From Dehalococcoidia bacterium CG2_30_46_9 (GTDB lineage: Bacteria; Chloroflexota; Dehalococcoidia; GIF9; AB-539-J10), in contig MNYE01000097.1 in NCBI GenBank assembly GCA_001873005.1, forward strand, positions 1-5,559: 5,559 nucleotides of DNA, written 5' to 3'. Positions within the stretch are counted from its first letter, which is position 1; every line of letters begins with the position of its first letter. The notes under the pieces were generated by a model that saw only the letters and a list, made by a program, of their open reading frames with translations, was not told where the DNA came from and ran no database searches. This document shows positions 49-4,341 of this stretch, piece by piece. A program made the position numbers and the translations under genes.

Positions 49-126
49 TGTCATGCTGAACTTGATTTAGCATCTATGCCCTGAAACAAGTTCAGAGTGA
101 GATTCCGAAACAAGTTCGGAATGACA
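49..126. repeat. composite of three hairpin repeats (copies A, B, C)
   Basis: Three copies of one 19-21 bp inverted repeat lie in tandem. Copy A (54-72) has arms TGCTGAA and TTTAGCA around CTTGA. Copy B (79-97) has CCCTGAA and TTCAGAG around ACAAG. Copy C (102-122) has the perfect arms ATTCCGAA and TTCGGAAT around ACAAG. The block is bounded by TGTCAT (49-54) and ATGACA (121-126), itself an inverted pair. Its right end abuts the TAA stop of the ATP-grasp gene (127-129), so copy C would form a hairpin at the 3' end of that mRNA. There is no strong T-run after it, so calling it an intrinsic terminator would be overreach. I recall similar dispersed repeats from Dehalococcoidia-type genomes. Confidence 0.85.
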
Positions 127-1180: not shown

Positions 1181-1279
1181 AATTAAAAATCAAAGGTCAA
1201 AAGTCAAAATGACAACTCAAAATGCAAATTTTTAACTTTTGCTCTGTCATTTTGCATTTTTATTTTTGCCTTTTGATTA
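1181..1279. repeat. AT-rich interspersed repeat with crossing inverted repeats
   Basis: This is a low-complexity block of CAAAA/TTTTG-type units spanning the 3' end of the aminomutase gene and most of the following gap. It holds two perfect inverted pairs: AAAATGCAAA (1219-1228) with TTTGCATTTT (1251-1260), and AAAATGACA (1206-1214) with TGTCATTTT (1245-1253). The pairs cross and share bases 1251-1253, so the two stems exclude each other. The aminomutase stop codon (1204-1206) is inside the block, so about the last 21 residues of that enzyme are repeat-encoded. I recall similar AAAATCAAAA-type blocks as common intergenic repeats in some anaerobe genomes; a genome search would settle this. Confidence 0.65.
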
Positions 1280-2704: not shown

Positions 2705-2723
2705 CCCTGAACTTGATTCAGGG
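2705..2723. repeat. hairpin repeat copy D
   Basis: A perfect inverted repeat has arms CCCTGAA and TTCAGGG around CTTGA. It begins six bases after the amidohydrolase stop codon (2730-2732, minus strand), so it would form a 3'-end hairpin on that transcript. No T-tract follows directly. Function as a terminator or mRNA 3' protector is possible but not shown. Confidence 0.85.
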
Positions 2724-2729
2724 TAGTGC

Positions 2730-4292
2730 TTAGCATTTACGATATACTACTTCTCCACCAATGATAGTCATCTCCACCTCTAAATCCTTCATCTTCTCAA
2801 CAGGTACCTCCGTGGGATCACCGCTCAAGATCACCAGGTCGGCAAGCTTGCCGGGTATTATATTGCCCTTTATTCCTTCTTCAAAGGAAGCATAGGCGGC
2901 ACCTTCAGTATACATTCGAAGTGCCTCCAGGGGAGAAATACTTTCTTCGGGCAAGATAGTTTCTCCCGTCTCTGCTTTGCGCGAAACAGCGGCGTAAATA
3001 CCAACTAAAGGATTGGGTGGAACTACAGGACAGTCGGAGCCAGCAGCTACCTTAACACCGGCTTTAATAAGAGTGCCAATAGGGTATAAGCGCTCAAGTT
3101 GTTCCTGCGCTACTGTATTGAGATATCTTTCACCACTATAATAGATAAAAGCCGGTTGAGTAACCACTACCACTCCCAGTGACGCCAGTCGTTTTGCCAT
3201 TTCTGGTCGGCACACAGAGCAATGCTCTATACGATGGCGATGTCCGGCTCGAGGAAACCTCTTAAGTGTGCGCTCCATAACTGAGCATGCTGCCTCAATT
3301 GTGTTCTCCTCAACAGCATGTATGGCAACCTGTCCTGAAACAAGTTCAGGATCAGATTGATGAACTTTTAATACCATCTGTTCCAGCTCCTGCCAACTCG
3401 GGCAGAGCCGTCCCGTGGTTTCCTGTAAAACTATTTTCACGGCACCAAGGCGCATTTCGCTGCCACTTGTCATTCCTGACCCTGAAACAAGTTCAGGGGA
3501 AGATTGTTGAAACCCCTCCTCCCCCAACATCAAGCTTAGCCGGCACCTCAGGCTCCCTTGACTTTTCCAGCGTTGAAACAGATTCCATTGTGACATAGTG
3601 TTCAAAGAGGCATCTCCAACTGAGGTTATGCCCAGGGAAAGCAATTTTTCGCCAGCTAACTTTATTGCCCGATTCAGCTCACTATCCGCAAGTGGTGGAA
3701 CCTTCTTAGCTAACATACCACCCATGTCATAAAGTAAGCCATTTGGCTCACCTGACTCACAATCGCGCTCAATAATGCCACCAGGAGGCTCAGCGGTCTC
3801 CTTAGAAATACCAACAAGGGCTAGAGCCAAGCTATTCAATACATGAGCATGCCCGGAGCGATGTGTTAGTTTCACGGGATGTAGGGAAGTTGCTTTATCC
3901 AGGTCCCAGCGTTTAGGATGTCGTTTCTCCGCCAGGTAGAATTCATTATACCCTTCACCATTTATCCAGCTTCCCGGCGGCAAGTCCCTGGCTGATCTGG
4001 CAACCTCTTTCTGTATATCAAGAATGGAATGCACCCGGGACGGACTTAAGTCGAGACTTACCATGCTTTTAGCCAGGGCAATAAGGTGACAATGAGCATC
4101 ATTAAAACCAGGCAGGATCGTCTTCCCCCGGCAATCTATAATAGCAGTCTCTGGCCCTTTGAATTCCTCTAATGCCTCATTTTTTGCCACTGCCAGCACC
4201 TTGCCATTCTTAATAGCGATAAGCCGAGCCCTGGGATAATTGGAGTCCAGGGTTAATACATTAGCATTGTATAGAATTAAGTCAGCGCTCAT
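2730..4292 (-). CDS. YtcJ-type metal-dependent amidohydrolase (amidohydrolase 3 family)
   Basis: This 520-residue protein has the composite urease-like TIM-barrel architecture: an N-terminal beta-sandwich strand set (1-60), the HxH metal motif NDAHCH (H67, H69), HRSGHAHVLNS (144-154), K286 in GAVKI as the likely bridging lysine, H325 in AIHAV, H357 in RIEH, and D420 in GSDCPV, then a C-terminal GKLADLVIL return segment. Relatives hydrolyse amide or N-formyl bonds (N-substituted formamide deformylase is the characterised example I recall), but most have unknown substrates. The usual HAIGD motif reads HAVEE here, and the stretch after K286 (VLQETTG) also departs from the family pattern. Two copies of a dispersed hairpin repeat are inserted in frame, each encoding PELVSG (residues 266-271 and 315-320), just before conserved elements and probably in loops. 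The ATG at 4292 matches the family start, but no clear ribosome site precedes it. The deacylase gene lies 49 bp upstream. Confidence 0.88.
   Translation of the reverse strand: MSADLILYNANVLTLDSNYPRARLIAIKNGKVLAVAKNEALEEFKGPETAIIDCRGKTILPGFNDAHCHLIALAKSMVSLDLSPSRVHSILDIQKEVARSARDLPPGSWINGEGYNEFYLAEKRHPKRWDLDKATSLHPVKLTHRSGHAHVLNSLALALVGISKETAEPPGGIIERDCESGEPNGLLYDMGGMLAKKVPPLADSELNRAIKLAGEKLLSLGITSVGDASLNTMSQWNLFQRWKSQGSLRCRLSLMLGEEGFQQSSPELVSGSGMTSGSEMRLGAVKIVLQETTGRLCPSWQELEQMVLKVHQSDPELVSGQVAIHAVEENTIEAACSVMERTLKRFPRAGHRHRIEHCSVCRPEMAKRLASLGVVVVTQPAFIYYSGERYLNTVAQEQLERLYPIGTLIKAGVKVAAGSDCPVVPPNPLVGIYAAVSRKAETGETILPEESISPLEALRMYTEGAAYASFEEGIKGNIIPGKLADLVILSGDPTEVPVEKMKDLEVEMTIIGGEVVYRKC
3333..3351 (-). 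repeat. hairpin repeat copy E, in frame within the amidohydrolase
   Basis: Perfect arms TCCTGAA and TTCAGGA flank ACAAG. The copy encodes residues 314-320 (DPELVSG) on the minus strand, immediately before the conserved QVAIHA strand. The outermost stem pair is T-A where other copies have C-G, a compensated change. Confidence 0.9.
3468..3498 (-). repeat. hairpin repeat copy F with flanking unit, in frame within the amidohydrolase
   Basis: Perfect arms CCCTGAA and TTCAGGG flank ACAAG at 3480-3498. They are followed on the minus strand by TCAGGAATGACA (3479-3468), which resembles the GGAATGACA edge of copy C (118-126). The unit encodes residues 265-275 (SPELVSGSGMTS), a loop-like stretch before the conserved RLGAVKI strand. 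Reading frame and peptide are the same as copy E. Confidence 0.9.
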
Positions 4293-4322: not shown

Positions 4323-4341
4323 CCCTGAATTAAGTTCAGGG
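4323..4341. repeat. hairpin repeat copy G at the deacylase stop codon
   Basis: Perfect arms CCCTGAA and TTCAGGG flank TTAAG. On the minus strand the repeat begins at the very next base after the TGA of the deacylase gene (4342-4344). It could act as an intercistronic hairpin like REP/BIME elements; no T-run is present. Confidence 0.87.

What the first reader, a model, noticed from the sequence alone, without database searches (positions are those of the whole stretch)
3333..3498. Repeat inserted twice in frame in an enzyme gene, giving PELVSG both times
Copies E and F lie in the same orientation and frame within the amidohydrolase and encode PELVSG at residues 266-271 and 315-320. One frame of the repeat on each strand holds a TGA, so an open frame is needed. 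Both insertions sit just before conserved strands (RLGAVKI and QVAIHA), apparently in loops. This is a domestication of repeat DNA into protein, similar in principle to Rickettsia palindromic elements.
Basis: partly seen in the sequence, partly recalled or inferred. Interest (0 to 1): 0.75.

Follow-up and report, generated by a model that had tools for sequence, protein, structure and literature searches.

The report
Hairpin repeat adding five codons, in-frame
A 19-base hairpin repeat, present about 268 times in the genome of an uncultured bacterium, lies in frame inside dozens of its genes, including two sites in this enzyme gene, and its commonest effect is to add exactly five amino acids, likely because it replaces four bases of its target when it inserts.

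Summary
Copies E (3333-3351) and F (3480-3498) are one 19-bp hairpin, YCCTGAA-CTTGW-TTCAGGR, read in the same frame as PELVSG at residues 315-320 and 266-271. None of the 119 best-listed homologues has PELVSG. Site E is five residues longer than in all 119; site F four longer than in the nearest two. Both lie between a helix and a strand in a confident model. The genome (taken to be a Dehalococcoidia MAG) holds 268 copies against 5 for a reversed control.

PELVSG is not special. In a 274-kb sample, 66 of 146 copies lie in 51 called genes, in all four open frames (LKQVQ-type 29, PELVS-type 13, LNLFQ-type 12, PETSS-type 12). Hosts include Mfd (five copies), UvrA, MetG, Ffh and topoisomerase I. 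Of 59 copies inside one coding frame, 2 carry a stop.

Beyond the finding: the commonest net change is +15 bp, i.e. 19 bp replaces 4, in genes and at 7 of 14 paralogous empty sites; the rest scatter. Insertion would thus often be frame-neutral. "Domestication" is unsupported; tolerated insertion fits. Closest kin: CGTC/TGTC-tagged REPs and Rickettsia RPEs. New variant of a known kind; the mobilising enzyme is unknown.

The parts
2730..4292 (-). amidohydrolase (Amidohydro_3, several homologues named YtcJ), 520 aa, host of both insertions
   Evidence: ORF; PF07969 E=1.5e-92; homologues named 'predicted amidohydrolase YtcJ'
3333..3351 (-). copy E: 19-bp hairpin TCCTGAACTTGTTTCAGGA (gene strand), codes PELVSG at residues 315-320
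   Evidence: +5 residues against 119 of 119 listed homologues
3480..3498 (-). copy F: 19-bp hairpin CCCTGAACTTGTTTCAGGG (gene strand), codes PELVSG at residues 266-271; the following bases TCAGGAATGACA resemble the far end of a longer compound repeat (inference)
   Evidence: +4 residues against the two nearest homologues, +2 against 101 of 119
2705..2723 (+). intergenic copy, CCCTGAACTTGATTCAGGG
4323..4341 (-). intergenic copy, loop variant CTTAA
49..126 (.). compound intergenic repeat: TGTC-preceded hairpin 49-73 (+), untagged 79-97 (-), TGTC-preceded hairpin 102-126 (-)
   Evidence: hairpins of the tagged kind counted

Best explanation
The two PELVSG stretches are two copies of one 19-bp hairpin repeat that sits in frame in an ordinary amidohydrolase gene whose 119 listed homologues lack it, and it is likely a non-autonomous mobile element that an unidentified recombinase would exchange for, most often, four bases of target. 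Shown: the repeat is dispersed (268 copies), has defined ends (seven paired positions, then pairing below chance), is read in four frames in 51 sampled genes, many of them housekeeping genes, and its commonest net change is +15 bp, five codons, both in genes and at paralogous empty sites. Inferred: because 19 - 4 = 15, the commonest insertion keeps the reading frame; two of six orientation-and-frame combinations carry TGA and are removed by selection together with insertions that hurt folding; the survivors in loops are neutral passengers. Inferred and untested: movement is catalysed, and the enzyme prefers targets of the form T-W-R before and (T/C)-W after.
For: Dispersal: 268 matches against 5 control matches; at up to 2 mismatches 244 in this genome and at most 9 in any of 99 relatives. 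Ends: the outermost pair of the 19-mer is complementary in 153 of 158 hairpins (85.9 expected from composition), the next position in 45 of 158 (62.8 expected). In genes: 66 of 146 copies within 51 proteins; hosts named. Net +5 aa, against the 119 homologues listed for each protein: site E 119, Mfd residue 24 118, reductase 102 119, reductase 158 107, Mfd 261 86; MetG, RibF, HisA-type, GltB-type and acyl-CoA dehydrogenase 146 against relative G003. Outside genes: 7 of 14 empty sites give +15, with ACTT, AATT or CTTT replaced; an eighth, with GCTT replaced, shows at shorter flanks. Similar flanking bias inside and outside genes. Stops: 2 of 59 copies in a coding frame against one third expected, p = 3e-8. 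Between helix and strand here.
Against: The size preference is a mode, not a law: the other 7 of 14 empty sites give 11, 12, 13, 14, 16, 17 and 19, once each. Four of the seven +15 cases lie in loops of sister hairpins and may not be independent; without them it is 3 of 10 (p = 0.09), and all multiples of three together are 8 of 14 (p = 0.06). Among ten sites with deep homologue sets, five show +5; the others show 0 (reductase 237), +10, +7, -3, and +2 to +4. Against distant relative G003 7 of 30 comparisons give +5, 5 give +4 and 18 something else. No mobilising enzyme was found: Y1_Tnp is absent from a genome 83% complete, and other families were not searched. No insertion was seen segregating; movement is inferred from comparison only. 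The gene calls are my own simple method.
Confidence: 0.6

Rival explanations
1. No dedicated enzyme: the hairpin likely spreads by replication slippage or template switching, which copies a palindrome into a stalled fork and loses a variable few bases of target.
For: Removed lengths vary from 0 to 8 at paralogous sites, and about 19 bp were replaced at reductase 237 (net 0 in 114 of 119). The nested insertions fall at ACTT, which the repeat's own loop region also carries. No Y1 transposase.
Against: Sharp element ends, a mode at 4 bp and a flank bias shared in and out of genes suggest recognition.
Confidence: 0.3
2. Domestication: PELVSG was kept because it improves the amidohydrolase.
For: The same hexapeptide at two sites of one protein.
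Against: Four reading frames are used across 51 proteins, with the LKQVQ frame commonest (29 of 66); copies are under-represented in genes; residues 271-276 have pLDDT below 50.
Confidence: 0.05
3. DNA-uptake signal: copies arise by point mutation and are kept because they promote DNA uptake.
For: High copy number and occurrence inside genes.
Against: Length changes: listed homologues are 5 residues shorter at E, Mfd 24 and reductase 102. Known uptake signals are shorter and not hairpins (recalled). Competence genes were not searched.
Confidence: 0.03
4. Translational bypass: ribosomes skip the hairpin, as with mitochondrial byps (recalled).
For: Hairpin insertions in many genes; one superoxide dismutase gene carries a copy in its TGA frame (L047).
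Against: If copies were skipped, about a third should sit in stop frames; 2 of 59 carry a stop.
Confidence: 0.03

Closest known systems
CGTC/TGTC-tagged REPs (Di Nocera, De Gregorio and Rocco 2013, PMC3733652; read: abstract, sections 6 and 15, part 1 of 2 of section 17, and passages)
   Same: Short high-copy hairpins with 4-5-nt loops, no known dedicated transposase, found inside genes including uvrA, tRNA synthetase and pseudouridine synthase genes. This genome's sampled part also holds 29 TGTC-preceded hairpins with 8-bp stems, an outer A-T pair and the same GAACTnnnTTC centre.
   Different: The common 19-mer has a 7-bp stem and mostly no tag: within 6 nt of either end CGTC in 0, TGTC in 11 and CCTC in 2 of 182. 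The parts read do not report a net +15 bp preference; CGTC repeats are listed there for five phyla, Chloroflexi not among them.
Rickettsia palindromic elements (RPE; passages in PMC10969869, and PMC3733652; the 2002 original was not held)
   Same: Palindromic repeats in frame inside unrelated genes.
   Different: RPEs are described there as about 150 bp; RPE-4 and RPE-6 as CGTC-type REPs. Here the unit is 19 bp and most often adds five residues. No RPE sequence was compared.
GTAG REPs and RAYT transposases
   Same: Short dispersed hairpins, often paired or nested.
   Different: GTAG lies within 6 nt of 3 of 182 copies and no Y1 transposase was found.
Double-hairpin elements of organelle genomes (search listing only; rest recalled)
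   Same: Small hairpin elements thought to be mobile.
   Different: Mitochondrial elements; their sequences were not compared here.

Membership tests
CGTC/TGTC REP superfamily | unpaired CGTC (or TGTC, CCTC) tag at one end | tested here: not met
   Within 6 nt of either end in 0, 11 and 2 of 182 19-mers, no shuffled control made; a smaller set of 29 related hairpins is TGTC-preceded
CGTC/TGTC REP superfamily | stem of 8-9 bp beginning with A-T, loop of 4-5 nt | tested here: not met
   Loop of 5 met; stem 7 bp with outer pair C-G or T-A; pairing falls below chance at the next position
CGTC/TGTC REP superfamily | no association with a transposase gene | tested here: inconclusive
   Y1_Tnp absent from a genome 83% complete; other transposase families not surveyed
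GTAG REP / REPIN | GTAG tag and a RAYT (Y1) transposase in the genome | tested here: not met
   GTAG within 6 nt of 3 of 182; PF01797 no match in the own genome, matches in 5 of 14 control genomes
Rickettsia palindromic element | palindromic repeat inserted in frame in unrelated genes | tested here: met
   66 copies in 51 called genes
Rickettsia palindromic element | sequence homology to an RPE family of Rickettsia | not tested
   No RPE sequence was fetched
MITE | target-site duplication on insertion | tested here: not met
   13 of 14 paralogous empty sites show loss of target bases; the fourteenth, weakest, shows neither loss nor duplication

The most novel reading that the evidence does not exclude
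A frame-neutral mobile hairpin: an element whose insertion chemistry swaps 19 bp for 4 bp, so it adds exactly five codons wherever it lands and can colonise essential genes; four of its six readings are open, so two thirds of in-gene landings make a protein with a short loop extension.
Probability: 0.4. Interest if true: 0.8.

Novelty: new variant of a known kind. Interest (0 to 1): 0.6.

Why it matters
REPs and Rickettsia elements inside genes have been known for over a decade; in the passages read, surviving insertions are put down to removal of harmful ones. Here the size of the exchange, measured also outside genes, points to a process that favours frame-neutral events. If true, it offers a natural five-residue insertion scan of the housekeeping proteome: dozens of sites where Mfd, UvrA, MetG, Ffh, topoisomerase I and others seem to accept extra residues. 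It also gives a concrete handle (19 in, 4 out, T-W-R before the site) for finding the unknown enzyme behind untagged short palindromes.

Tried and rejected
Y1 transposase in the own genome: none. Rfam on the window at gathering scores: no match. Reductase structure: low confidence (pLDDT 60.8), not used. Literature search for the repeat and peptides by their letters: 0 papers; further searches listed REP, RPE, MITE and organelle papers among others; no title, abstract start or passage that I saw reports a 19-for-4 exchange, but most subscription papers are not held. A strict target motif (NCTT) suggested by noncoding sites was dropped: the glycine codons at the MetG and RibF sites do not fit it (my reading). 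Stretches of G017 and G019 with a few copies gave no close empty sites. A first regular expression for tagged hairpins was wrong and returned 0; the corrected one gave 29. That called genes contain no stop-frame copies is circular; one search is the fair test. The -1/+1 base counts counted both strands and were redone with oriented copies.

Full report
WHAT IS THERE. The window is contig C30 of genome G000 (1,075,535 bases, 138 contigs, 83% complete). Its same-family relative G003 carries the closest orthologue among the 40 relatives searched; the best named match is a contig of the same length, 31,063 bases, from the Dehalococcoidia MAG CSMAG_2498, so the host is taken to be a Dehalococcoidia bacterium (inference). 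The amidohydrolase at 2730-4292(-) is an Amidohydro_3 protein.

INSERTION, NOT ANCESTRAL RESIDUES. The protein search found 7567 homologues and listed 120, the first being the query; all statements on homologues concern the other 119. None has PELVSG. The nearest (84% identical) reads HQCKL-QVAIHA at E and QQYQEGLLNTKGSE at F. At E, 119 of 119 are five residues shorter; at F the two nearest are four shorter and 101 are two shorter, in a loop of variable length. At F, four other homologues (P0018, P0022, P0026, P0028) carry other peptides that look like translated repeats (SEAKQ, HSERSEES; that these come from repeats is recalled), so this loop has probably accepted foreign sequence more than once. 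The AlphaFold2 model (63 sequences, pLDDT 92, pTM 0.91) places both inserts between a helix and the next strand.

THE REPEAT. The unit is 19 bp. Among 158 hairpins with this centre, the seventh pair is complementary in 153, the next position in 45, below expectation; in the 19-mers C-G and T-A alternate at the outer pair. It folds as RNA at -7.1 to -8.6 kcal/mol and as DNA at -5.5 to -5.7. Loop variants CTTGT, CTTGA and CTTAA dominate. Matches: 268 at up to 3 mismatches, 5 for the control. At up to 2 mismatches 244 here; of 99 relatives the highest counts are 9, 7 and 4 (G019, G017, G065), so the expansion looks recent and local (inference). Four of G019's nine lie on a stretch 99.9% identical over 1,380 bp to G000.

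IN GENES. I took stretches around copies (273.7 kb distinct) and called genes with a simple codon-usage method of my own. Of 146 copies, 74 were intergenic, 6 overlapped gene edges and 66 lay inside 51 genes, 11 of which hold two or more. Readings: LKQVQ-type (LKQVQ 20, LNQVQ 6, three others) 29, PELVS-type 13, LNLFQ-type 12, PETSS-type 12; the four are not equal (p = 0.005). Positions along genes fit a uniform spread (KS p = 0.73). Of the 51 proteins, 37 were scanned for families, the window's own among them: Mfd with five copies, RelA/SpoT, glutamate synthase, a HisA/HisF-type protein, IspD, methionyl-tRNA synthetase, acyl-CoA dehydrogenase, a phosphorylase-family protein and a reductase; UvrA, Ffh, trigger factor, PurD, acetolactate synthase and, below their cut-offs, PurL and an electron-transfer flavoprotein; TruA, MnmA, CarB, ThiE, AroA, an RluA-type synthase and, below its cut-off, FtsK; RibF-type, NuoF-type, aconitase family, dihydroorotate dehydrogenase, topoisomerase I and a trypsin-like protein. 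Four of the twenty scanned against NCBIfam gave nothing at 1e-20. Copies in genes are fewer than coding density predicts even after allowing for lost stop frames (p = 6e-15), so selection has probably removed many. A separate test that lets frames run through stops, on 211 copies, found 59 flanked by one coding frame: 57 open and 2 with a stop. One of the two is a superoxide dismutase gene (C-terminal piece PF02777) with a TGA in the copy (L047); the other lies before a weak DDE transposase match and carries a mutated copy (L074).

THE SIZE PREFERENCE. With homologue sets for three proteins (10 sites, 119 listed homologues each), five sites show exactly +5 residues in 86 to 119 of 119; reductase 237 shows 0, Mfd 111 +10, Mfd 249 +7, Mfd 304 -3, and F +2 to +4. 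Against G003, 7 of 30 comparisons give +5, 5 give +4 and 18 something else, at 29-83% identity and in variable loops. Outside genes no frame selection acts. Of 183 oriented 19-mers, 14 have a paralogous empty site in the sampled sequence with both 20-nt flanks at up to 4 mismatches: net +15 in 7, and 11, 12, 13, 14, 16, 17, 19 once each. Whether each of the 14 lies outside genes was judged from their repeat-like flanks, not by a separate gene call. The replaced four bases are ACTT (5), AATT and CTTT. Against a flat spread over nine values p = 0.0004; leaving out the four cases nested in loops of sister hairpins, 3 of 10, p = 0.09. So 4 bp is the preferred replacement, not a rule. Flanks show mostly T at -3, A/T at -2 and purine at -1, and T/C at +1 and A/T at +2, similarly in and out of genes.

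MECHANISM. Defined ends, a preferred replaced length and a shared flank bias favour a catalysed exchange; the scatter of lengths and nesting at ACTT leave room for template switching. No Y1 transposase was found.

KNOWN KIN. Di Nocera et al. 2013 described short REPs inside genes, many of replication and repair, and CGTC REPs without a dedicated transposase (PMC3733652). The sampled part of this genome has 29 TGTC-preceded hairpins with the same centre, so the untagged 19-mer is likely a trimmed relative; by its tag and stem it does not meet the definition. In Mfd, 31 of 119 listed homologues match motifs that I take, from recall, for other translated repeats, so repeat insertion into this gene may be common in the lineage.

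Noticed in passing
L047 about 1498-1518: A superoxide dismutase gene is interrupted by a copy of the repeat in its TGA frame: a likely pseudogene or an unusual decoding case.
   Followed up: partly
L077 1-3429 (-): Mfd carries five in-frame copies; 31 of 119 listed homologues carry other repeat-like peptides (SEAKQ, CHSERSEES, EERSDEAI); at residue 111 the nearest homologue has one of them at the same place.
   Followed up: partly
G003 stretches L091-L130: The relative without this repeat has its own abundant palindromic words (such as CCCAATAAATTGGG, 35 in 730 kb), so each lineage may have its own family.
   Followed up: no
L029 1501-1517 (AroA) and L080 2501-2517 (PurD): Copies lie inside what looks like another translated repeat (CHC...EAIS), giving compound in-frame insertions, in PurD directly before LEFNARFGDPET.
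   Followed up: no
L271 3465-4844 and L074 9335-10714: A contig of G019 is 99.9% identical to G000 around a transposase gene carrying copies of the repeat: misbinning or recent transfer.
   Followed up: partly
window 1181-1278: AT-rich inverted repeat (42-nt arms, 74% complementary) with TTTTGA-type words; similar sequence is a target of the 19-mer at L083, L033 and L177.
   Followed up: partly
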